Both the position numbers and the translations under genes were made by a program. A stretch of 64,000 nucleotides of DNA from Thuidium tamariscinum. Lineage: Eukaryota > Streptophyta > Bryopsida > Hypnales > Thuidiaceae. Numbering within the stretch: position 1 is the first letter of the stretch; each line of letters begins with the position of its first letter. The stretch covers positions 10,480,501-10,544,500 of the forward strand of contig OX344755.2 of NCBI GenBank assembly GCA_947034885.2, in the 5' to 3' direction. Positions 398 to 47,393 of this stretch are shown here, piece after piece. The notes below the pieces were generated by a model. The model ran no database searches. It was not told the origin of the DNA and saw nothing but the letters and a program-made list of their open reading frames with translations.

Positions 398-1380
398 TGG
401 TCTAGACAAGAAAACTTCTCCTTCGACAATCCAAGGTCTGTCGGGAACTCGGAATTGGGGACGATGTTCACCTTTCTGCGTTGACCGGTCCCGGTATGTA
501 TCTGTGCCGTATAGGGTGGGTTAAAGCAGGTCCAATGGAGCCGGTTCCCAGCACGCCAAACGCATCCACTAAAAAACAAATTCAACTGGCCATTTTTCAT
601 CTTCGAGTCAGCAATTTGGTAACTTAAGTTGGCTCCTCAGTTGGCTCACAAATGGAAAATTCATAAATGTTAAAACCTTTTCAAGGATTGTTACATATAC
701 CAATTGATTAGAACTTCCTTCTTTGCATGAAAAGTTTTTATTAATGTAGAAAGATTCATTTGATATTTGCATTGCTAACTTTGCATTGGATCAATTTGTT
801 TTCAAAAGTCACTAGAATGCAATGGCTGTGCCTACCTCTACTTCAAAATTTGGATATTGTACTTGTTTTCTTCTCCATATTGGAGATGTTCTCACAAAGG
901 TGCACAGTGCCAACAAAGTTTCACCTCAATGTTTACTAGATTCAAGTAAAATCAACTACAAAAGGGTGCTACTACCTACAATGACAATTAGATTTTATAT
1001 TAATTTTTATAAATAAGTGTCATATGTCATCTTGTAATTGGTGTAGGGTGTCATGGACTTCTCAAATTTGACATGGAAAGATCAAATTCAATCTTCACAC
1101 CCAACATTTTAAACCAATTTGTATTGAATTCTTTAGTTATTTAGAAAGAAGGTAAAATGTCACTTCACAAATATTGTGGGAAGGAGTTAAGATCAATTAC
1201 TTTTGATCCACTCCTTTTGTGATTGATGAAGGGATCATCTTGCATGCTAGAGAAGAAAATAGGTCCTTCCCAATGAAAATCAATAATGTTATGCACTTCC
1301 TTATCAAAACTAATATTTGCATACAATATATGGATTATCTTTGTGGTGCTCATTTATAAGAGTTACATTCTTTAAGTCAA

Positions 1381-1643
1381 TTGAGTTATTTGTAAAGTAC
1401 ATTAAACCGAGGTTTAAACCCATGAGTTTTGTGAAAAAGCCAGTTGAGTTAAAAAAGTCGAAATAAAAGTGGGTATGAAACTTATTTTTCCATCAAAATG
1501 GTGCCTAAAAAAGTTTGGTCCCCACTTTTGAAGTCGTGTGACATAAGCATCTTGCAAAAAAGTTTGACGCTTCAACTATAGTTGCCTTCTCAACTTCAAA
1601 AAAAGTCATGCCCAAAGTGGGGGGGACTTCACAAATAACTCAA
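1381..1643. mobile_element. MITE-like insertion with 13-bp inverted ends
   Basis: The 263-bp segment starts TTGAGTTATTTGT and ends ACAAATAACTCAA, a perfect 13-bp terminal inverted repeat. Repeat copy B lacks it (junction near 14348), so the insertion is polymorphic between the two copies. The exact target duplication is unclear because the flanks differ by a few bases. It has no coding content. Confidence 0.7.
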
Positions 1644-2273
1644 ATATAGCTAAAATATTACTAGAATGTATTATTTTTTGAAAAAAGATGTTTTGCCATT
1701 AAAAGAAAACAAGGATTTTTGCAACTACAATTTGCAACCAGTTTTGTCATTGCATTAGGCATTTGCAACTAGGTGACAATTTGGAGACTATAGTTGTAGT
1801 GGACAAGTTGCATTAGTTGCAAGTTAGTTGCAAAAAGCAACAAAGTTGTTTCTCATCCGATAGCCTTTATAGAACTTTGTCAATGAATTCTTCCAATGTG
1901 GTTGTTGATGTGGAATTTGATTGTTGCGACTGATTTGCAACTAATTTACAACTAGCTTGCAATTGAATTATTTGTAGATTTTAAAATTTTAATCTCAATA
2001 ATTTGTAGATTTCAAAATTTTTAATCTATCTTCTTTTTTAGATTAGTAATCCAAATATTTATATTAATAGATATCACTACTTTAGAAAATTTTACAATTT
2101 TGCATATTTCTACAATTGGTAGATTTTTGTAGACTATAGAAATCTAAAATCGTAAAAATTTACAAGTTGTAGAAATCTACAAAATATAAAAATATTAGAT
2201 TTTCATTATTAAAATTCATAATACAAGAATGCTACAACTTATGATTCTTATAAGTTTAATCTAATGATACTCC

Positions 2274-2281
2274 TAACAATT
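2274..2281. repeat. Left 8-bp target site duplication of the 10.4 kb transposon
   Basis: TAACAATT immediately precedes the element's CCCGGGGAGGACAC end and is repeated at 12687-12694. Repeat copy B at about 14972-14990 reads CCTAACAATTAATAT with a single copy, which is the empty site. Confidence 0.92.
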
Positions 2282-2345
2282 CCCGGGGAGGACACTTCTA
2301 GTACTTTTGGGGGACCCACGTGCGGCGGTGGGGTATTTTTAGGGG
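2282..2345. repeat. Left terminal region of the 10.4 kb transposon
   Basis: It contains the terminal GGGGAGGACACTTC and the subterminal CCCACGTGCGGCGG block. The same sequence, inverted, forms the right end of the short derivative at 47088-47385. The two conserved blocks are candidate transposase-binding sites. Confidence 0.85.
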
Positions 2346-3033
2346 GCCTATTTACTTCCTAGAAAGCATTTAAAGGACCCCTATTATTATATAAAGCCAA
2401 AAAATTACCCATACTATTATATCTATCATTACTTATAATATGTAGGCAAAAGGAATATATTAGAGGCTATTTTCTTTGAAAGGGTTAAAACTAACAAAAA
2501 AATAATGAGAATACAAGTGACTAACAAATACCTTATAGAAAAATAGATTCAAATTATAACAATGCATGAACACAAATACAACACAAATACATGCATGAAA
2601 AGCAAAACATTAAGGTTGAAAAAATATTGAAGAGATTTTAAGGACAAAAATGTGTTTAAAAACACAAATGTGAAGTTAATCTGTAAACTATGACCACAAA
2701 TATATGCCGCAGCACAAAAAAATACATCATAAATACGCCGTTCTAACTCCTGCACCCAACCAAATTGCAAACATCAATGGAGTTAGATCATTAAATCTGC
2801 CATTTCATCCACAATACCTCAAAATCATTATAAGGACAAGTCCAGTACCATCATAAGGACAAGTCAATTGCTGTCAACACAAATGGTAGAATGGTTTATT
2901 ATTTACAAGCAAGAATTTACTCCATAATGCAGTATAGAATACTAAACTCAAAAATTAATAGCAACTGGATTGAAGCGCACAAACTCATCCTCAAAGATCT
3001 AAATGCAAACTGAATTGAACTTAACTCTAAACT

Positions 3034-3199
3034 CTAAACCTCCCCAAAAAGCATTTCAGCACCCAACTTTCCATCACTTCCACTTATGCCAGAGCTTGTC
3101 ACTGACTGACCTTTGTCTGCTTTTCTATTCACAATTCCAAGTCCTTGCGTGAAGTGTTGCACACCATCGCATTGTGAATTCGAACTCAATCTATGACAC
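3034..3199 (-). pseudogene. Possible terminal exon of an unidentified captured gene
   Basis: On the minus strand an acceptor (TTTTTGCTGCAG) is followed by about 54 open codons ending in TAG at 3036-3034; the last residues are MLFGEV. A second open stretch at about 3330-3460 ends in a run of Lys at a possible donor (AAAAAG|GTACTA). The phases of the two pieces do not join cleanly. They lie inside the 10.4 kb transposon, downstream of the ATP-citrate lyase fragment, and may be another captured gene or the tail of the transposon's own transcript. I recognise no family. Confidence 0.25.
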
Positions 3200-3654
3200 C
3201 TGCAGCAAAAAGATGTCAGATCTCAACCCAATCTTGCCTAATGGTGGAGAGTTGAAGCAAAGAACAAAACTACCGAGTATTTGGAGAAAAACGAACACCG
3301 AAGTTACACCCTTACATTGAACTAGCAATATAGTACCTTTTTCTTTTGACTTCTCAGTGGCCTAAACCGAAGTTTCTCCCCAAAATTGACCGCACTTGCA
3401 GTTCCAGTGTCATCTGGTGCCCGAGAAGGCAATACCGCATCTCTTTGTCTTACTCCAAATTTGAAGAAACAAACAAGAATATAGCATCAAGCAAGCAATC
3501 TCGGCAGGAACTCAACAGTCTACCTATGCTAAAACAGAGATTTTGAAACAAAACATATGACAAGTTAATACAGAATGATGACTTCTTTTATAAAATTGGA
3601 TTGATATCCATCAGATAGACACTTCAGCTACATATTAATCGATGCAAATGGAAT

Positions 3655-3737
3655 AAAGAACTTGACAGCGCTGAGGATGATGCTGAGAATATCATTGGCA
3701 AATACCTTGCATTGGAAAAACAAAATAAGCGGTTGTG
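3655..3737 (+). other. Short open stretch inside the transposon, possible exon remnant
   Basis: The plus strand stays open through an acidic, helix-like segment (KELDSAEDD, then IIGKYLALEKQNKRL) ending at TGA. The composition is protein-like and it has no obvious repeat origin. It could be a fragment of a captured gene on the plus strand. It is short, with no clear splice sites, so this is only a note. Confidence 0.15.
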
Positions 3738-3789
3738 AATAACATCATCCTTGTTGGCAATTTTCATTGGGAGTGAATTCACTAATTAC

Positions 3790-4525
3790 CTCAATTGAAA
3801 CTCCAGTTTCTTCACCTAGAGCGTGCATGTTTGTCAGGCCCTTTAAGTAGTTTGGGCCTCCTCGTCGCACATAAATGTTCATCCTTGCTGCTTTGGGATC
3901 AGATTGCTGGCAACAGACAACAAATGATGAGTTGACAAATAACAAAATGTCAAGGGAGCTTTGGTTAAAACCTGGTACACAAGACAAATGTGTGTTGAAT
4001 CTCGAGGGGGAAGGAAGCTTACCTTCTCACGCATGGCACGAATGATACCATTGAAAGTGGTTGCCACATTAGTGAATTAGCAATGCCTGAGCCTCCAACT
4101 ACCAATGCTCTCTTGCGGCCATCAGGGTTTGCGGTTGCACACTGACACGATCAAGAACTGTGTTAGAATCTAGATTGATTCTCCTTCCAGTACTTTTGAA
4201 AGCGAGGTAAGAATCAAAACCTGTATGAACCATAGAACTTAGCTTTGTAAAGTGGTCATAAAGGTTCCATACAGTAGAAGGATCAAATAGTCACAAGCGA
4301 GCTCAAGAGAGAATTAGATTGAAACTAGGTCCACCATTGTCTGGAAGAAGAATGAACTGAAGGAATTACAGTAAATACGGCTAAAAACTGACAGGAGGAA
4401 AAAATTACATCAATCAAGGCACGTGCATACTGTAAGGTCTCCTCCTCGTTTGGAGCTCCGCTATATTCAGCATAATTGCCAAGTTCTTGTGCATAACCCA
4501 GATCCCCCAATGTTACGACAAACCC
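3790..4525 (-). pseudogene. Captured fragment of ATP-citrate lyase subunit A (three exons with introns)
   Basis: Three minus-strand exons match the C-terminal part of plant ATP-citrate lyase alpha chain: 4525-4409 ([20 protein letters not shown]), 4141-4023 (CATANPDGRKRAL, then the IAN region) and 3906-3790 ([16 protein letters not shown]). Each is bounded by GT/AG sites, so introns were carried along and the capture was at DNA level. The intact enzyme makes cytosolic acetyl-CoA from citrate. Here the N-terminal ATP-grasp region and the last exon are missing. Exon 2 has lost a T in the conserved NFTD segment, shifting the frame, and has a 3-base insertion just before it. It lies between the transposase tail and the left end of the 10.4 kb transposon, so it is a passenger. 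Confidence 0.85.
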
Positions 4526-4760
4526 CTGAGAATCTTCAACCGTAAGGTTGTCCTCCAACTTTTGAAGCCTGCTGATGCTTCAATTGCTCCAGTTGCAACT
4601 GTAAAACTTTGGTTAATGCACTATAAGAGAAACAATTTACTTGGATAGAGTTTCACTTGGATCCAGTACCAAGTTTCTCATTACAGGTGTATAATTACGA
4701 AATGCAAAACATAGTCAGGAGTCACAATAGCTTCATAAATTGGGCAGTCCATACCTAAAA

Positions 4761-7700
4761 TCATCTTGCATTTTTGTCAGTCACAAACTCGCGCAAATGC
4801 TCTGCATCATTGTGATCTAGAGAGTAGACCTCATTTGCAGGGTTATACGCCAAGGTCACGGTACATATAATGCAATCAATGTCGATCCATTTGCTGTCAG
4901 TATGATCGTACTTGAATTTGTCTCGTCCAATATATTTGCGGTAATACTGCAACATGACCTCAATATGCGGATTCTAAGCTTTTCGCTTCCCATTTTCCTC
5001 CAATCTCGCAAGCAAGTCCACAGGCTGCCGCAGCACACCGAACTGCTTTCCATTGCGCCGCCTCATAGCCTGGACTCTACCCAACCAGCAAACACCCTCA
5101 TCTACAGCATGTAAAACATTAGTAGGAGTTAACCTTGAAATATTGGATGGACAACCTCGTTTACGCTTTGCAGCAGATATGACAGTAGAAGACAACCGAG
5201 TAGTGCTTCGCTGGACAAAATGAACAGCACAATCAGACCCAATAGACAGCAAACCTGACCCTGATGACAAGCTCGCCTGCATACAATTGTCGTGGTTATT
5301 AAACTGAATGCTATGCTTTACTCTAGCCAATCGATCCTTGGAAAGAAAGGTACTGCCATTCAACTGCGAAACGAGAGTAGACTTGTAAATGCAATGGTTG
5401 TCCACGCTGACAGTTGCTTCAATTAGCTGACTGCTTGCCGGCTGTGAAACTTGAACCTCGGCACCATTAAGCAAATCAGTCACTACATCTCGGGCTTCAT
5501 CTTGAAGACTTGTTAAATGGTCAGGTAAGCAATCCTCTGTAGTGTTTTCCTCTAGGTTGTCCCTCATGTGAGGTGCTGCAAGTTCAAGTGTTGAAGGTTC
5601 GTTCTGTAAGCGATCCCGCAAGACCTCGGAGTCCCCATCCTCCCCAGCCGTCGGTCTAGCACCTGGTTTGTAATGGAAGCATTTAGGGTCTTCTCTCTCC
5701 ACCAGCCATGGCCTGTCATACCAAATTCTCCATCGTGGCTGGCATTGTGAACTTGGAGCCATATTCAAAGACCTCAACATGCCTTGGGCTTGTTTCAGTC
5801 CCTCCTGCAGCGCTGATATTACCTTTGCGTTTGTTGGAATGAGGCTGTAGTCACCCAAATTGCACCGCTGCTCCCCAGGTTGCAACTTGTGCAATGATTC
5901 CCAGACAAGGTCCATCTTGTTGTGTTGTTTCTTGAAGACTAAACCATTCTTCCCATACTCAACAGCTGAAATGTGGTTCAATGTATTTGCAGTGTTCACC
6001 AATTGGTGGAAGTCATAGGCACGTTCTTGGCCATTCATGCCACCAATTCTTGAGAAGAAGATTTCGCAAGAATCACTCCCAGTCAAATGCAGCGGCACAG
6101 CTAAGTTAGGGAACTTGTCTCTGAAATGACAAATTAGAAGAACAACAAAATGACATGATAATTGAATATCAATAAAACATTGTAGGCTTACAAAATTCTT
6201 TGCCTGCACAGGTTTTTGTGAATTCCCCAATACACTATAATCTCCGTGCTGCAACCACAATCTCCAAAGTCATAAGAAAAAGGAGACCTTGCCACACAAT
6301 ACTATCCTAGAACATAAATCCAAAACAGGAGAACAGAAAATGTCAATATAGGAAGCACATATATCCAAGTAAAATTCCGTTCCAAGGGTTCTTTCACGAT
6401 GAGGATAATCTGGAGCACGCATGCGAGCCAAACATGTCCTGACTTTTGACTGACACAACCTCTGAGCCGCAGCCCAATTCTGCCGGTCCCTTCTTTCTAC
6501 ATCTTCTCCTGTCAAACCATGTTCTTCAACCGTAAACTGCTGAAATACTTGCTCTATGTGACCATGGAGACACAAATCTCCTCCTAATTGCAAAGTTCTA
6601 GCGGCTGAAAGCAACGGATTAATTAGTTTTTTCCCATTATGGAGATAATCTTGGTCATGAAGACCCTTAGCATTCCCACACGAATCTAAAGAAGCAGTGA
6701 ACACCCAACCCTCCCACCCTACATCCAAGCGGATTCCATCGTTCCTCTGGTAGTCTGCCAGCATCAGCTGCCTCCTACGAGAGTCACCGTCACTGGCGTG
6801 TCCCACAATCGGGCCTACTGCTGCAAGGCATTCTTGTTCCCACAACTTGTCAATACTGTCCCATTGACCTCTAACCCAATCGGAATTGAAGCAGTTGCAA
6901 GTGCAGCAGACAATTAGCACAATTCGAGGAAGTAGTTCATGCGAAGGATTTACAACAACTACTTGAGCAAAACTCCCTTTCCTGTTGTTGGAAAATGATT
7001 CTAACATTTTTCGATACCCCTCCTCACCACTCCCAACAATTGGCCTGAAACCAGACACACAGACATGGTTCTCAGAAGGACCACAAAACCCAGCAAGAGT
7101 ATCCCACTTACTTTCCCAAGCCACTCTCCCTTTAACTTTTGTTTCATCCTCAGCGAGAATTACTGGTACTGGACCTAGAATGTTATGAGCCAGCTTAGCA
7201 TCCCTATAAATCTGCGCCACAGTTGCAAAAATTTGTGGGTGTTCACCGGGTAAAAATTGGACCCCTTTCCCTCCCTCCCGTTTCACTTGACGGTAATTTG
7301 CACCTAAGTAGTTCAAAGAAAATAGATCGACCATCCTACGACCACCGTAAACCTTCATAACTTCCCCTAAGCACTTCGTGTTCTTACTGTACCACTTTCC
7401 TCTACGATCACGGTTGAGATTCTACGCCACATCACGGAGGAAATCCCACATCGCAGGCTTTCCACCTAAAGCACTGGACCTGTGGGCGTTGATTATATTT
7501 TGACAAAATTTCAGAACATTGTTCCCACAAGAAGCCTCTCTAGCTAAATCACTCAAACTTGGATGCTTGACCTTGAGCTGAACAATCCTAGCCTGAGCGG
7601 ACCTATGCAACAGTTTCTGACTCTTAAGTTCCTTCCTGAGTTTCCGACCATGCCCAGCGAGTTCCAAAATGGACAGGTAAGCAAGTCGCCTTCCGGCTCC

Positions 7701-9334
7701 TGTGCTTCTCGATCCCCGTTTTTCTACGCTAAACCCTTCCCTTACAACTCGTTTATAAAAGTCATTTTCTTGTGGGATAGAAGAGCACATTTTGCAAGAG
7801 AGATGCGGGAATCCCTTACCAGATTTATCAACCCTAATACAAGATGTATGCCTAAACGTACCGCTGATTTTTATAACTTTTGACCCTCTAGTGAAACTCG
7901 CAGTCAAATGAGGTTCAGGATACCAAACTGAACCGACATGAAGGTCATTCAGCAACTCAGAAACAGAGTAAGACAAACCACCGTAAATGCAATGTGGACC
8001 TTGAAAACCCCAACACAAGGAACCCAACAATGCATTCATGCGGGATTCTAAACACTCACCTGATTGAGATTGAGGCAAAGAACCAACGTGGTCGCCCTGA
8101 GGCAGCTCCCCAGCGTGGTCGGCCTGAGGCAGGGAACCAGCGTCGTGGGCAGTAGCATCCTCAGAAACTCCAGATTCGGCCCTCCACCATCTTCCAAGAT
8201 TCAGCTGATTTGAGTGTACACTGACCCTAGAGGAGAGGGCAGGTCGGCCTCTTCGTCCAGACAGGAGTGGGGCGCCGTGTTTCTTCCCCGTCTTCGCCTT
8301 CTCTACGACCTGTAAGTGCTTGGTAGACACTAAGTGCTGCTCCAAATTAGATTCCAAATTCTTCTTGGGTGGGCACAGGTTGTGCATCTCTCGACAATAG
8401 AAACAGCGCACCTTCATCCAGAAACTCTTTCGTTTGCCTTCTTTGAGCGGCTGGAACACGGTGAAAGGCTTCTGCAAATCTCCCAAACTAGCGTTCACTG
8501 CTTCCATGACTTCAATGCCTTCTTGTATCAATCTCTTGTGCATCTCCGGAGTTAATGGAACGTTCCTACCCTTAGGAGCAACAGATTGCGGGTGATCAGC
8601 GTATTCCACTCCATTATGAGCGCACCAATTCTTCACGTGGGTGTTGCTGACCAAGTGCTTCCATCTAAAATTGTTGAAGATATTTCCAATGTTGCTCCTC
8701 TCGTGCTTACCACTGCCCCCCCAACCTCCTTGCAACATTCTACACAGAAAATTTTCACTACCCCTTGTCCATTGATGTCGACAGTCTTCAGCATCCACCG
8801 ATTGTCTTCCAATGAGGCGCAGTGCAATTCCCTCTTCAGCTTCTCGGCGTGTTCAAGGTAGCGGGCCCAGATCTGCTCCGAAATCAAAGTGGAATGACAT
8901 TCATGCTCTAAAGAATCGGTGACTCCTGATGTCCCACTAACTCTAGAGTTCGCTAGATCGGGAACTGCACCTGCTTCACAATCGAGGGAACAATTTCCAT
9001 CTTCGGGTACCTGCATTTCAGGTACCTACATGGCTTCACTTCGTGTACCTGCATCGTCCAGGCGACGGCGTTTGGAGGCTTCTCCTGAAATCGCATTCCC
9101 CAACGGCAAAACAAAAACATCCACAGGCATGTCGCTGAAGGATTCCATTCTCTGCGGAACTCTGCTGCCCTCCTCCTTGTCCCAGAAGTGGAATGGCCAA
9201 TCCAGCGCTGATTTCTCCTCTAAACGCAGCCTCAGTGATGCATAGGTTTCGTCTTGGGAGACCTTGACCTTGTTGTAGAAAGTTGGTTCTCCAAAATCCT
9301 CCTCTATAGTCCACATTTTAATCGTAGTGGCCAT
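4761..9334 (-). pseudogene. Decayed transposase-like gene of the 10.4 kb transposon
   Basis: One reading path runs from ATG 9334 to TAG near 4761, about 1,500 codons. It is broken by in-frame stops at 9026-9028, 7422-7424, 6270-6272 and 4974-4976 and by a frameshift at a seven-C run (8716-8722). Order of parts: an N-terminal region of about 75 residues with a ubiquitin-like look (Phe-Trp-Asp in the middle); a Cys-x2-Cys site near 8740; a Cys-x2-Cys plus paired His zinc finger at about 8310-8405; a further Cys-rich segment near 7800; then a core with AEDET (about 7148), ASDGDSRRR (about 6790), HDQDYLHNGKKL (about 6640) and SDSCEIFFSRIGG (about 6060). Acidic motifs in that order suggest a DDE-type RNase H fold like P-element transposases. 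The C-terminal part resembles a Tudor/BAH-type segment only loosely. Placement inside the inverted ends supports a mobility role. Precise superfamily unproven. Confidence 0.75.
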
Positions 9335-10283
9335 GACTGACTTCCCTAAACCCTATCCCAACCCTTAAACCCTAAGGACCTCACGAACACGCCTGGAACA
9401 CGCGGTTGCGAGTTTAGTTTTGAGATCTTATACACTGGAGCAGCTTGCACTCCTGCGTTCCTCTCCCTAACCTAAACCCTAAACACTCGCCAATACTCAG
9501 TTGAAACAAACGCCAGATACTGAGATACTGGAATCCTAAAACATCAGTGAGCGAACTGCGGCTAAACCCCGGCACCCAGATCCCTCAACCCTAAACTACA
9601 AGTATCCCCACTCCCAAGTCCCACCAGCCCCAAGCAACAGCATGATATCCACCAAATCACCGTCTAATCTTTGCTGAATTTGAATTGCGACTTCGTATCA
9701 CCTACTCAAACCTGCTGCAAAAGCACGAGTCCCAAATTAGGGTTTAAACCTTCGAGACAAACGATCCAAAGATCTAGGAATTCTCCACCAATTGCAAAGA
9801 CATACAAGAATCACAACCCGATTATGAAACACGTAGCCAGGAACCCCACAGATGGAAATTTTGACCCATGAAAACACTCCAATTCTGGCCTGAAAGAAAC
9901 CGACCAGAATCCCATGTCAAACTCTCTTTGACAAAGGATATATGACCTATAACCCTATCGCCACATTCATTAAACTGGCAAGTTTTTGACAAAGCGGCAC
10001 ATTTCCAAGGCCCACCTCGAACCTCAGACCTGTGTGCACTCAAATGTCACTTTTCAATTTAAAAACCACTCAATTTTAACTAACATGACCATCCTTCTGT
10101 GCAATGTGAATCTTTGAGCCTCAAAGAGTAGATCTGGAAATTCCATAAAACTTGGCATCAAGTCAAATAACTGTCTTGAGCCTCAGGCTCGATCTCAAAC
10201 TCGAAGGCTACTTACTTGAGAATGGCAACTGCAAATTGAGAAAATCTCGTTCATATCATATAGAACGGTGTCAGCAAGCTTAC
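9335..10283. other. Non-coding interior of the 10.4 kb transposon (upstream of the transposase)
   Basis: The stretch is GC-richer than the spacers and dotted with CCCTAAA-type motifs on the plus strand (9355, 9477, 9590 and others), which are TTTAGGG on the transposase strand. It is a plausible promoter and leader for the transposase-like gene. It also holds one copy of a 74-bp exact duplication (9700-9773). I see no convincing exon. Confidence 0.4.
9700..9773. repeat. 74-bp direct duplication, copy 1
   Basis: Identical base for base to 11790-11863, about 2.1 kb away within the same transposon. It contains an AAATTAGGGTTTAAA segment. A perfect match implies a recent copying event inside the element. 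Confidence 0.9.
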
Positions 10284-10477
10284 AATGAAACAACTGTCTC
10301 CTTGAGGCAGATCACACCGATCCACTGATCCGAGCATGGGTCCGATTGCCACGTCCAGTTCTGAGATAGTCCTGGGGTTGCATTCCAGACTTGTCCGATA
10401 TTATGCAATGCATTCACTGCAATGTTCGCACCAAGATTCATTAGAGCCTTCAAGACAAAGAGAGAAAGAGTTTGCAC
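10284..10477 (-). pseudogene. Captured first-exon fragment of an LRR receptor-like kinase
   Basis: The minus strand encodes a degenerate hydrophobic leader followed by ALHNIGQVWNATPGL, then SDPCSDQWIGVIC, and stops at a donor (CATT|GTAAGC). The pattern W-x-x-TP, NW, SDPC, W-x-G-x-x-C is the LRR N-terminal cap of plant receptor kinases, especially the family VIII (HPCA1-like) group. No repeats or kinase domain follow. It lies between the transposase and the right end of the 10.4 kb transposon, so it is best read as a second captured gene fragment. Confidence 0.65.
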
Positions 10478-10536
10478 TCAGAAAAAGACTACCAGAGCTC
10501 AGTCGCCCAAAAGTTGATCGCAGATGCAAACCCTAA

Positions 10537-12640
10537 TGCTAGTTATTGCAGATGTGTCAGGTTTTCTCTTATTACTAGCTAGATGTTTATAACCCATAAC
10601 CCTCTCTTGTGATTTTCATTGCCACATGGTGCAATGTTATTGAAAAAGGGAAGATATTTAAAGGAATAACCTCATCCTCCCCACACTCTTCTAGAAAAAC
10701 CCATCAATCTCCAAGATTCGACAGTCTCAATTAAGTTTGGAGGAGAGGGTTAAGGTTGATGACCGATTTGCGTCTAACGGCCGTCATAAGGCAATTTGGT
10801 ACAAAAAACTGTGTTCAATGTCAACCCTGTAAATCCTAGGATATTTTAGATTCAAGAATACAACAATGCACTCTGTCCCGTACACTCCAATCCAACACTA
10901 ATTTTCATCGGAAACTTCGCCTACCCTAATGTACTAAAATGCTTTGAAAGGCTTGTAGTAAGGGTTCAGTAGAAAAAGACGATTTGAGCAGCCATAGAAA
11001 GGTTTCGAAATTTGCCAACCCTCAAAGTAGGTCAATAAGTGGCAGAATCATTCCAATCCAATTGCAAGAACGTATGCAATGCTCGTACTAGAGAGAAATG
11101 ACTGCTGTGAAGGCCACACGAGGAGACATAGGCTAAATCTTAGAAATCACCAAACAGGTTTCAACTTTCTGATATTTCTGAACCTCGTCGCTGATTAGGA
11201 CCATCGGAAGTCAAGTCAGCTATAAGTTACTTCTCACGCCACCCACTCTCTCACGGTCTGTACAATGTGGGTTAAAAACACTCAACTAATGCCTCCAGTG
11301 CACCAACTTCTGTGCCTACATGAGGTGCCTTGCAAGTTCAGTACGATAACTAGGCAGTAAGCACCTTAGGGCAAAAACTGCATCACCTTGCTAAATCGAC
11401 CAATAACTATCGATGAATACATAGGTTGCCGAGCAATTGTTGCAAGAACTGTCTAAAGTGTGGGCTTGGGAGATCACCTCAGTGGCCAGGTTCGCCAAAG
11501 AATTGGGGGTGTCAGACTGCGATTCAAAATGATTTTGAAATCATTGTCAACAAGCTGCAGCCTATCATCCACAACAAAATCTCATCAGAAATGGGAAAAT
11601 CCATGGCTGAAAACCCTAAATCTTGTTGGACCAGAAATTCATGGTCTAAAACGACCAATTCAAAGGGTCATACTGTGAATACAATTGAATTTATTTGTAA
11701 CCCAATTCTATATCACCAGAGTCCATAAAGAACATTTGATGTATTAGTCAAAAACAGAACAAAATTGGACAAAAGAAGCTCTCCATCTGACCTACTCAAA
11801 CCTGCTGCAAAAGCACGAGTCCCAAATTAGGGTTTAAACCTTCGAGACAAACGATCCAAAGATGGACAAAAGAGAGCACGCAGCTTACTTGTGAATGACC
11901 GGCACGGAATTAGAGCTTCAACTGCTTCAATCCAGCGCTAGATTGAGAGAGAAAAACCGGAAGAGGAAGGGCGGGGAGATGCGGTGATTGCGGGCAGCGC
12001 CTTCGTCACGGATTGCGACCACATGGGGCGATGGGGCGCAGAATGGGGCTCGAGAATCATCAGGCAAGGTCGAAGGAAGGTCGGAGCCTTCATACAACCC
12101 TAAACCAACAAGGTCAATTCTTCAGTGCTCCATTCCTGAAAATACAATCCAGTCATAACCGTCTCTGATCTCAAAACAGCAGCACAATACAATAGCGAGG
12201 CATCCATGTCTGGCATGCACACATCCAGAAGTAGCACATTGAACCCCTGGTGTTGCTGAAAAAAAACATGCGGACTAACAGTTTCTACTAGTCGTTATAC
12301 TAGAAAGATATGCTGGAAAGATATGCTAGAAAGATATGAATTAAAAGAATATGTTGTAGATGAGCTGTAGAATATCTACAGTACTTGATGAGCTGTGGAT
12401 ACTAGTGTGGATACACTATAGCTGTATATGATTAGTATTATAAATATTAATTGAACCTATTAAATTTTTTTCCTAGGATCCCATTCTTTTGCCCCTAATT
12501 TATATCTACCTAAATTCTAATGAACCATATTTTCCTAAACCCTATATTACTTATAAAAGACATGCCACTTTTAATGTCCCCTAATTTATATGTAAATATT
12601 TTATAAATATTACCTGAGATTATTTAAATGTACCCTAAAT
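10537..12640. other. Right interior of the 10.4 kb transposon, no clear gene
   Basis: Moderately GC-rich up to about 12280, then AT-rich toward the end. It contains the second copy of the 74-bp duplication (11790-11863) and a GC-rich patch at 11880-12100 that looks like a captured leader or promoter. Open frames near 11426-11728 overlap one another and show no domain. More captured host DNA is possible but not identifiable by eye. Confidence 0.35.
11790..11863. repeat. 74-bp direct duplication, copy 2
   Basis: Exact copy of 9700-9773. The motif GGACAAAAGA occurs just upstream of this copy (about 11767) and again immediately after it, so the segment looks like an insertion with a short local duplication. 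Confidence 0.9.
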
Positions 12641-12686
12641 TTCGCCGCACGTAGGTTATTAAAAAACGGGAAGTGTCCTCCCCTAG

Positions 12687-12694
12687 TAACAATT
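12687..12694. repeat. Right 8-bp target site duplication of the 10.4 kb transposon
   Basis: TAACAATT directly follows the CTAG end of the element and equals 2274-2281. The following bases (AATATAGGATAATTG) continue the repeat-unit sequence seen without interruption at about 14985. Confidence 0.92.
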
Positions 12695-13546
12695 AATATA
12701 GGATAATTGATATGAGACTTAATCCTAGTTGTTTTTTAGTTGTATACAAATTGTTTCTTAGTTGTAATGTAGCTGCTTACTAGTTGAATTCTAATTGTAG
12801 GATAGTTGAATGCTAGTTGCATAGTAGTTGATAACTAGTTGCACAATCACACAATAGTTGTACAATAGTTGTATAGTTCACATAATAGTTACACAATTGC
12901 ACAAATACTAGTCAACAACTGTAATAAACATTGGATGTAGAATACTTTACAATTCTTTTTCTTTTTCATTCCTGTAATTCTTAACTTCATTTTGCAACTA
13001 CTTTGCGACTACTTTGCAACTACAACAATGTAAATGTCAATTTGGTGCAAATATAGATAGTTGTAGTAAATACGTTTTTCTTCTAGTGCTTATAGTGACA
13101 CTAATTTTGCAATTGATACATTGTAGGATTATACTGGTGGGACAAGAAAACAAACAAATAAGTTTTAAGAGACCATTATATCTAATACATAATAGACTAC
13201 TTTACCCTCAAAAATCATCTATCTTGAGGTCATTTGAATGTACATACTAATGATATAAAAAGTGCATCTTTAATATTATTCAAGTGGTAAAGTTTGACAA
13301 ATAAGTGTTGAAAATTTTCATTCTAAAGAAAAAAATTAATGAATCTTTTGTTATCCTAGCACTTCAATCTCCACATTTTTTTTAGTCATTTCTACAATGA
13401 CACTCTTGCAGTGCCTTAAAATTTTTCTAAGAAACTCTTTATTGTCTATTGTTGTAGAGCATTCAAAGTTTTCTAAGAACCTTTTAAAGTCAAAGACACT
13501 TCTAAAGAGCAATTCTACATTGAGCTTCAACTAAAAAACACGATCC

Positions 13547-15884
13547 AATTCAACTGGCCATTTTTCATCTTCGAGTCAGCAATTTGGTAACTTAAGTTGG
13601 CTCCTTAGTTGGCTCACAAATGGAAAATTCATAAATGTTAAAACCTTCTCAAGGATTGTTACATATACCAATTGATTAGAACTTCCTTCTTTGCATGAAA
13701 AGTTTTTATTAATGTAGAAAGATTCATTTGATTTTTGCATTGCTAACTTTGCATTGGATCAATTTGTTTTCAAAAGTCACTAGAATGCAATGGCTGTGCC
13801 TACCTCTACTTCAAAATTTGGATATTGTACTTGTTTTCTTCTCCATATTGGAGATGTTCTCAAAAAGGTGCATAGTGCCAACAAAGTTTCACCTCAATGT
13901 TTACTAGATTCAAGTAAAATCAACTACAAAAGGGTGCTACTACCTACAATGACAATTAGATTTGATATTGATTTTTATAAATAAGTGTCATATGTCATCT
14001 TGTAATTGGTGTAGGGTGTCATGGACTTCTCAAATTTGACATGGAAAAGATCAAATTCAATCTTGACACCTAACATTTTAAACCAATTTGTATTGAATTC
14101 TTTAGTTATTTAGAAAGATAATAAAATGTCACTTCACAAATATTGTGGGAAGGAGTTAAGATCAATTACTTTTGATCCAATCCTTTTGTAATTGATGAAG
14201 GGATCATCTTGCATGCTAGAGAAGAGAATAGGTCCTTCCCAATGAAAATCAAGAATGTTATGTACTTCTTTATCAAAACTAATATTTATATACAATATAT
14301 AGATTATCTTTGTGGTGCTCATTTATAAGAGTTACATTCTTTAAGTCAATATTAATAGCTAAAATATTACTAGGATGTATTAATTTTTGAAAAAAGATGT
14401 TTCTTCATTTAAAGAAAACAAGGGGTTTTGCAACTAGTTTTGTAACTTTTGTCATTGTATCGGGCATTTGCAACTAGGTGACAATTTGGAGACTATAGTT
14501 GCAGTGGACAAGTTGCATTAGTTGCAAGTTAGTTGCAAAAAACAGCAAAGTTGTTTTTCATTTGATAGCCGCTATAGAACTTTGTCAATGAACTCTTCCA
14601 ACGTGGTTGCTGATTTGGAATTTGATTGTTGCGATTGGTTTGCAACTAGTTTGTAACTCATTTACAACTTGTTTGCAACAGAATTATTTGTAGATTTTAA
14701 AATTTTAATCTCAATAATTTGTAGATTTCAAAATTTTTAATCTATTTTTTTAAAATTAGAAATCCAAATATTTATATTGATAGATTTCACTACTTTAGAA
14801 AATTTTACAACTTTGTAGATTCCTACAATTGGTAGATTTTTGTAGACTATAGAAATCTAAAAATTTACAAGTTGTAGAAATCTACAAAATATAGAAATAT
14901 TAGATTTTCATTATTAAAATTCATTATACAATAATGCTATAACTTATGATTCTTATATGTTTAATCTAATGGTACTCCTAACAATTAATATGGGATAATT
15001 GATATGAGACTTAATCTTAGTTGTTTTTTAGTTGTATACTAATTGTTTTTTAGTTGTAATGTAGTTGCTTACTAGTTGAATTCTAGTTGTAGGATAGTTG
15101 AAAAGTAGTTGAATGTTAATTGCATAGAAGTTGACAACTAGTTGCACAATCACACAGTAGTTGTACAATTGCATAGTAGTCACATAGTAGTTGGACAATT
15201 GCATAGTAGTTGCATAAGTACTAGTCAACAAGTTCTGTAATAAACATTGGATGTAGAATACTTTGTAATTTTTTTTCTTTTTCACTCCTGTAATTCTTAA
15301 TTTCATTTTGCAACTACTTTGCAACTACAACAATGTAAACGTCAATTTGGTGCAAATATAGAGAACTTTAGTTGCATGGCAGTTGCATAGGACATGTAGT
15401 TGCATTGTAGCTAGTTGTAGCGGATACGTTTTTCTTCTAGTACTTATAGTCACACTAATTTTGCAATTGACATATTGTGGGATTATATTGGTGGGACAAG
15501 AAAACAAACAAATAAGTTTTAACAGACCATTATATCCAATACATAATAGACTACTTTACCCTCAAAGATCATCTATCTTGAGGTCATTTGAAAGTACATA
15601 CTAATGACATAAAAAGTGCATCTTTAATATTATTCAAGTGGTAAAGTTTGACAGATAAGTGTTGAAAATTTTCATTCTAAAGAAAAAAATTAATGAATCT
15701 TTTGTTATTCTAGCACTTCAATCTCCACATTTTTTAGTCATTTCTACAATGACACTCTTATAAGGCCTTAAAAACTTTCCAAGAAACTCTTTATTGTCTA
15801 TTGTTATAGAGCATTCAAAATTTTCTAAGAACCTTTTAAAGTCAAAGACACTTCTAAAGAGCAATTCTACATTGAGCTTCAACT
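13547..15884. repeat. Tandem repeat copy B, with empty transposon site
   Basis: The 2.34 kb unit is homologous to copy A. It lacks both the 263-bp MITE and the 10.4 kb transposon, and so gives the pre-insertion sequence for both. It is separated from copy A by about 14 bases. It contains an old CACTA-like element in its second half. Confidence 0.88.
14406..15442. mobile_element. Old CACTA-like element in copy B
   Basis: The left end CATTTAAAGAAAACAAGG and right end TTTTTCTTCTAGTA are degenerate versions of the CACTAGAAGAAAAT ends seen at 32123. The interior has many TAGTTG and TTGCAAC motifs in both subterminal zones. Non-coding and non-autonomous. Confidence 0.65.
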
Positions 15885-47079: not shown

Positions 47080-47087
47080 TTCAATAG

Positions 47088-47385
47088 CTAGGGGAGGACA
47101 CTTCCCATTTTTTAATAACCTACGTGCGGCGGAATATAGGGTACATTTAAATAATCTTAGGTAAAATTTATAAGAAATTTACATATAAAATAGGGGACAT
47201 TAAAAAGGCAAAGTGTTTTAAAAATAAAATAGGGATGATAATATGGCTGATTTTTCCGCTTTATGGTAAAATAGGGACTCTTTTAATGTTGCCAAGTAAT
47301 GATTACAAGTAATTGATAGCCCCCCTAAAAATACCCCACCGCCGCACGTGGGTCCCCCAAATATACAAGAAGTGTCCTCCCCGGG
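47088..47385. mobile_element. 298-bp deletion derivative of the 10.4 kb transposon
   Basis: The left part starts CTAGGGGAGGACACTTCC and follows the right end of the 10.4 kb element for over 100 bases, including CCTACGTGCGGCGG. The right part is the left end of that element inverted (CCCACGTGCGGCGG, then CCCGGGG). The 8-bp target duplication TTCAATAG flanks it (47080-47087 and 47386-47393). It is a MITE-like internal deletion mobilised by the same transposase type. Confidence 0.93.
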
Positions 47386-47393
47386 TTCAATAG

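What the first reader, a model, noticed from the sequence alone, without database searches (positions are those of the whole stretch)
2282..12686. A 10.4 kb transposon with an 8-bp TSD, and its empty site preserved in the same window
Matching ends (GGGGAGGACACTTC plus the subterminal CC(C/T)ACGTGCGGCG), a TAACAATT duplication and an uninterrupted homologous site in repeat copy B (about 14972-14990) together define the element to the base. The ends and the transposase motifs do not fit hAT. The AEDET / ASDGD / EIFFSRIGG set looks P-element-like but with an unusual N-terminus. This could be an undescribed plant lineage of an 8-bp-TSD superfamily.
Basis: partly seen in the sequence, partly recalled or inferred. 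Interest (0 to 1): 0.9.

Follow-up and report, generated by a model that had tools for sequence, protein, structure and literature searches.

The report
P-element-like transposon family in plant
This is a mobile DNA element in a plant genome whose cutting enzyme is predicted to share its core structure with the fruit-fly P element, a class that a 2023 review's list of such plant transposons does not name; its ends recur at probably over a thousand places, mostly as short copies, and several large copies carry pieces of a plant metabolic gene.

The parts
2274..2281 (.). left target site duplication TAACAATT
2282..12686 (-). the transposon, 10,405 bp; its main gene reads on the - strand
2282..2298 (+). 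left terminal inverted repeat CCCGGGGAGGACACTTC
2315..2327 (+). left subterminal motif CCCACGTGCGGCG
3781..4516 (-). captured exons of ATP-citrate lyase (PF16114): over-cut-off matches at 3781-3906 (profile 121-162) and 4400-4516 (47-85), with a weak third match between them
4761..9334 (-). transposase gene, broken in this copy (in-frame stops, a 1-bp frameshift near 8716 and a 15-bp difference near 9014-9028 relative to the intact copy L031)
9098..9334 (-). N-terminal domain of about 80 aa, homologous to the part of P0131 that models as a ubiquitin-like fold
8637..8746 (-). putative zinc finger 1 (CxxC ... HxxxxxH); residue pattern only; its two halves lie in different frames in this copy
8316..8405 (-). 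putative zinc finger 2 (CxxC ... HxxxxxH); residue pattern only
5949..7451 (-). P-element-like catalytic core (model residues 205-705)
7146..7148 (-). D306, first catalytic aspartate candidate (AEDET)
6789..6791 (-). D425, second catalytic aspartate candidate (ASDGD; D427 is the alternative)
6639..6650 (-). D472-x-x-H475, the C/DxxH signature
6063..6065 (-). E667, catalytic glutamate candidate (GSDSCEIFFS)
10283..10477 (-). short ORF resembling the N-terminus of LRR receptor kinases (weak, best E 0.0088); possible second captured fragment
12643..12655 (-). right subterminal motif CCTACGTGCGGCG
12670..12686 (-). right terminal inverted repeat CTAGGGGAGGACACTTC
12687..12694 (.). right target site duplication TAACAATT
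14979..14986 (.). empty (uninserted) site TAACAATT in the homologous tandem repeat copy
47088..47385 (-). 298-bp non-autonomous copy (MITE) with the same two ends in opposite orientation; TSD TTCAATAG at 47080-47087 and 47386-47393

Best explanation
A cut-and-paste DNA transposon of the P superfamily (in the sense of catalytic core and target site), from a lineage in which a ubiquitin-like domain and two putative zinc fingers stand where animal P elements have a THAP domain. The transposase most likely binds the subterminal CC(C/T)ACGTGCGGCG motif and the 17-bp ends, excises the element with a D-D-E RNase H active site that carries a P-type helical insertion, and joins it to target strands 8 bp apart, which gives the 8-bp TSD. 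Intact long copies would act in trans on the short copies that keep only the ends. Shown: ends, TSDs, empty site, number of end motifs, an intact ORF elsewhere, conserved acidic residues, low dN/dS between families, captured ACLA exons in several copies. Predicted: the fold. Inferred: catalysis, DNA binding by the subterminal motif, GTP use, trans-mobilisation.
Against: No direct sequence match to P: profile A2 against PDB sequences gives nothing relevant at E up to 10. PF21787 hits only 3 of 49 members, the best (P0126) under its cut-off; in the same scan Thioredoxin_4, surely a chance match, also hits 3 of 49 with best E 4.5e-4, so that count alone proves little; P0178 also passes the cut-offs of ArsD and Viral_alk_exo. 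No THAP domain. Of 8 full-length copies whose ends I sought, 1 (L030) has both ends but no matching TSD and 2 (L048, C4:21964441) gave no paired ends. GTP binding was not tested. dS between families is near or beyond saturation.
Confidence: 0.91

Rival explanations
1. An unusual hAT element: 8-bp TSD, short TIRs, and one end that reads CTAGGGG, close to the TAGGG start that I recall for hAT.
Confidence: 0.03
2. A distinct superfamily that shares only the RNase H plus helical insertion plan with P (a sister group of P rather than a member), or a group already named in Repbase such as Novosib.
For: No direct sequence match between this family's profile and P in PDB; the N-terminus differs; PF21787 support is thin in the plant members; Repbase could not be consulted.
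Against: The fold match covers 406 of 442 residues of the solved P chain including the insertion; P0178 passes the PF21787 cut-off; same TSD length; the spacing of D664 and E667 equals that of D528 and E531 in P.
Confidence: 0.25
3. The ORF is a domesticated host gene that happens to lie between chance repeats.
For: Large single-exon gene; C-terminal Tudor-like match in two distant relatives.
Against: Insertion shown by the empty site; 54 scored transposase matches in the genome, 47 of them with stops inside; the same kind of ends around L030, L031 and L038.
Confidence: 0.01

Closest known systems
Drosophila P element transposase (PDB 6p5a, 6pe2) and THAP9
   Same: Predicted HTH, split RNase H and helical insertion domain; D, D, E residues with the same DxxE spacing; 8-bp TSD; short TIRs with an inner inverted motif; internally deleted short copies (reported for zebrafish P-like copies too, PMC7776569 passages)
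   Different: No THAP domain found; ubiquitin-like fold and two putative zinc fingers at the N-terminus; 1,519 aa in one exon; plant host; no sequence match to the P chain in my profile search
hAT (Hermes, Ac)
   Same: 8-bp TSD, short TIRs, helical insertion in RNase H, C/DxxH signature
Transib / RAG1
   Different: 5-bp TSDs (recalled); much weaker fold match
Pack-type elements such as Pack-MULEs (recalled)
   Same: Carry host gene exons between transposon ends
   Different: Here the capture lies in the long transposase-bearing copies of a P-like family

Membership tests
P superfamily (in the sense of catalytic core and target site) | 8-bp target site duplication | tested here: met
   window 2 of 2; 16 of 20 C1 copies perfect; L031, L038; L041, L054; not in L030; ends not found for L048 and C4:21964441
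P superfamily (in the sense of catalytic core and target site) | RNase H-like core with D, D, E | tested here: met
   predicted fold and conservation D306 45/45, D425 45/47, E667 31/31 of rows with letters, of 49; catalysis not tested
P superfamily (in the sense of catalytic core and target site) | P-type helical insertion domain between beta5 and alpha4 | tested here: met
P superfamily (in the sense of catalytic core and target site) | GTP as cofactor | not testable with these tools
   no residue-level superposition and no biochemistry; only the DxxE spacing agrees
P superfamily (in the sense of catalytic core and target site) | Pfam PF21787 (TNP-like RNase H N) | tested here: inconclusive
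   3 of 49 members, best E 2.6e-4 at 21.7 bits, under the cut-off 24.6; P0178 49.4 bits; the window protein itself has no hit
Animal P / THAP9 subfamily | N-terminal THAP domain | tested here: not met
   no THAP hit in the eight ORFs scanned of the element nor among the families listed for 49 members, many of which lack the N-terminus; the N-terminus of P0131 models as a ubiquitin-like fold
hAT | hAT transposase domains in Pfam | tested here: inconclusive
   not among the 25 families listed of 28 for 49 members at E up to 1; absence of an HMM hit is not proof
hAT | closest solved fold is a hAT transposase | tested here: not met
KDZ (Kyakuja-Dileera-Zisupton) | KDZ transposase domain in Pfam | tested here: inconclusive
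   not among the 25 families listed of 28 for 49 members at E up to 1
Kolobok | TTAA target (recalled) | tested here: not met
   TSDs are 8 bp with varied sequence

The most novel reading that the evidence does not exclude
A so far undescribed non-THAP branch of the P superfamily, present in land plants and animals, that has been active in a plant genome, that carries a ubiquitin-like domain plus zinc fingers in place of THAP, and that captures and spreads host gene exons in its autonomous-size copies.
Probability: 0.5. Interest if true: 0.75.

Novelty: new variant of a known kind. Interest (0 to 1): 0.66.

Why it matters
A 2023 review counts nine DNA transposon superfamilies in plants and names the seven with TIRs; P is not among the seven (PMC10741241, passage). 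Another review says that THAP domains are restricted to animals (PMC7776569, passage). A plant P-type element with an intact single-exon transposase and probably over a thousand copies would make the origin of P elements, the role of their DNA-binding domain and possible use as a plant gene-transfer tool directly testable. 8-bp-TSD MITEs in liverworts, ferns and their kin could be misfiled as hAT (inference).

Tried and rejected
A response-regulator reading of the ORF at 12103-12294, which I first suspected by eye, found no support (best PDB hit E 0.35, unrelated). The LRR-receptor reading of 10283-10477 is weak (best E 0.0088), and Pfam scans of the 9335-12678 region in six frames gave no LRR hit; a genome search for its source did not complete. 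A scan of bacterial and archaeal genome contigs found no relative. Sequence searches of PDB did not reach P. Nine paper searches listed no description of such a family that I could recognise; the listings were capped (15 of 30, 15 of 23, 10 of 24, 12 of 2,157, 10 of 192). There I saw titles and abstract beginnings, and I saw passages only of PMC9033089, PMC7776569, PMC10045372, PMC10741241 and PMC6327564. KDZ, Kolobok, Dada and hAT are not among the 25 of 28 Pfam families listed. Searches (PF21787 in the own genome; CCCGGGG end in the own genome) did not complete. The N-terminal model (mean pLDDT 58.4) is poor outside residues 1-80 and about 150-350; only residues 1-82 were covered by the fold matches, so I claim no fold for the rest, and the zinc fingers rest on residue pattern only. 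The first dN/dS run failed for loci on the minus strand and was repeated for those.

Full report
Observation. The element spans 2282-12686 (10,405 bp). Its ends are CCCGGGGAGGACACTTC on the left and, on the reverse strand, CTAGGGGAGGACACTTC on the right; the TSD is TAACAATT at 2274-2281 and 12687-12694. It lies in copy A of a direct tandem repeat (579-2281 plus 12687-13532); copy B (13547-15884) keeps a single TAACAATT at 14979-14986. Copy A without the element aligns to copy B at 95.1% over 2,250 aligned columns, gaps not counted. Copy B shows an undisturbed site, so most simply the element entered copy A after the duplication.

A second copy in the window. The end blocks recur at 47091-47104 and 47369-47382, with the subterminal blocks inside. 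They bound a 298-bp copy, 47088-47385, with TSD TTCAATAG. Its two ends resemble the right and left ends of the long element at 86% (168 columns) and 76% (157 columns), so the two ends are distinct and both are kept.

Genome-wide. GGGGAGGACACTTC with up to one mismatch occurs 1,279 times forward and 1,278 reverse, against 17 and 21 for the reversed control; the exact 17-mer CTAGGGGAGGACACTTC occurs 369 and 392 times against 0 and 0. I did not pair all of these; over a thousand copies is an inference. The list shows the first 100 places, all on C1; I fetched 20 of the pairs seen there and left other pairs and unpaired places. Seventeen are 297-298 bp, one 649 and two 1,687-1,688 bp. At the fixed offset used for the window elements 16 of 20 have a perfect 8-bp TSD, two have one mismatch and two have two; the best of 9 offsets gives the same counts.

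Transposase copies. A search with the read-through window protein scored 54 matches at 47-100% identity, of 207 candidates; 47 of the 54 have stops inside the match. Copy L031 on C4 has one uninterrupted, intronless ORF of 1,519 aa, inside an element of 10,390 bp with perfect TSD GGAATAGT. L030 has no stop in the matched part, but its long open frame begins like the window's frame-shifted one, so its N-terminus is probably broken too. Copy L054 (59% identity) has an intact ORF of 1,513 aa in an element with TSD CTGACAAA and ends beginning CTCGGGGGG (5 of 18 TIR positions differ). L038 (82%) has TSD TGAAATCA and L041 (73%) ATTACATT, with 3 of 18 differing. Of 8 full-length copies whose ends I sought (window, L030, L031, L038, L041, L048, L054, C4:21964441), 5 have perfect TSDs, L030 has both ends but no TSD, and 2 gave no paired ends. 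As a control, 8 of 42 mismatched left-right pairs gave an exact 8-mer with up to 5 of 18 TIR mismatches. Two of the 8 are the same family in the other orientation. In the control hits printed (at most two a pair) none begins C..GGG, as the four element ends found in true pairs do; one true pair (L063/L064) also gave a second, chance-like hit.

What the window copy can do. Its gene has in-frame stops, a frameshift and a 15-bp insertion relative to L031, so it is very probably not autonomous. Seventy-three mismatches in 4,573 alignment columns separate the two, 65 of them transitions. Between families dN/dS is 0.145 (L038), 0.139 (L039), 0.09 (L041) and 0.086 (L042), with dS 1.0 to 2.6, so these are rough; for L048 and L054 dS is saturated. 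Against copies of about 92-97% protein identity it is 0.522 (L030), 0.407 (L036), 0.66 (L032) and 0.239 (L033), as partly decaying copies would give.

Gene capture. PF16114 exon matches (21 in the genome) fall on two loci that look like the host's ATP-citrate lyase genes (C2:27626241-27627371 and C10:4049196-4050270, profile 10-164); in or next to five transposase copies (window, L030, L031, L032, L040), there between profile positions 47 and 162; and on one fragment on C6 away from the 54 transposase matches. The window, L030 and L031 align at about 98-99% through this region, while the alignment to L038 covers only the transposase part and the ends. So the exons were most simply taken up once, before the 98% group spread. 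Twelve of the 54 transposase matches are at 92% or more; five of these have the exons. The exon set is incomplete, so a function of its own is not shown.

Distribution. So it is a wide eukaryotic lineage.

Verdict. A P-superfamily transposon by core and target site, outside the THAP-bearing animal subfamily; a new variant of a known kind. The review PMC10741241 does not name P among the seven TIR superfamilies of plants (passage). My paper searches (listed under Tried and rejected, several of them capped) showed no description of it, but Repbase was out of reach.

Noticed in passing
window 3781-4516; also C1:31542477-31543212, C4:11803189-11803924, C3:13431936-13432669, C1:53717819-53718554: Exons of ATP-citrate lyase in or next to five copies of the transposase; two apparent host genes on C2 and C10.
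   Followed up: yes
window 10283-10477 (-): Short ORF with weak similarity to the N-terminus of LRR receptor kinases; perhaps a second captured fragment.
   Followed up: partly
window 9691-9773 and 11781-11863: An 83-bp direct repeat (95%) inside the element, upstream of the transposase gene; its 74-bp identical core also matches in L060 and L061.
   Followed up: partly
window 579-15884: A tandem duplication of about 2.3 kb, into one copy of which the element inserted.
   Followed up: yes
window 9368, 9475, 9587: AACCCTAA (telo-box-like) motifs just upstream of the transposase start: 3 of 16 in the window on both strands.
   Followed up: no
L059 and L060 (C1:31540978-31550556): A near-identical copy with both ends but no matching 8-bp TSD; recombination between copies or a rearrangement is possible.
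   Followed up: partly
P0128 residues 1066-1119 and P0146 residues 1160-1217: C-terminal PTM/DIR17-like Tudor domain (PF21743) in two distant relatives; a chromatin-reading tail on a transposase would be of interest.
   Followed up: no
L023, L026 (C1:10882400-10884220 and 15288660-15290475): Copies of about 1.69 kb that keep about 500 and 350 bp of the two ends of the long element: internal deletion derivatives.
   Followed up: partly
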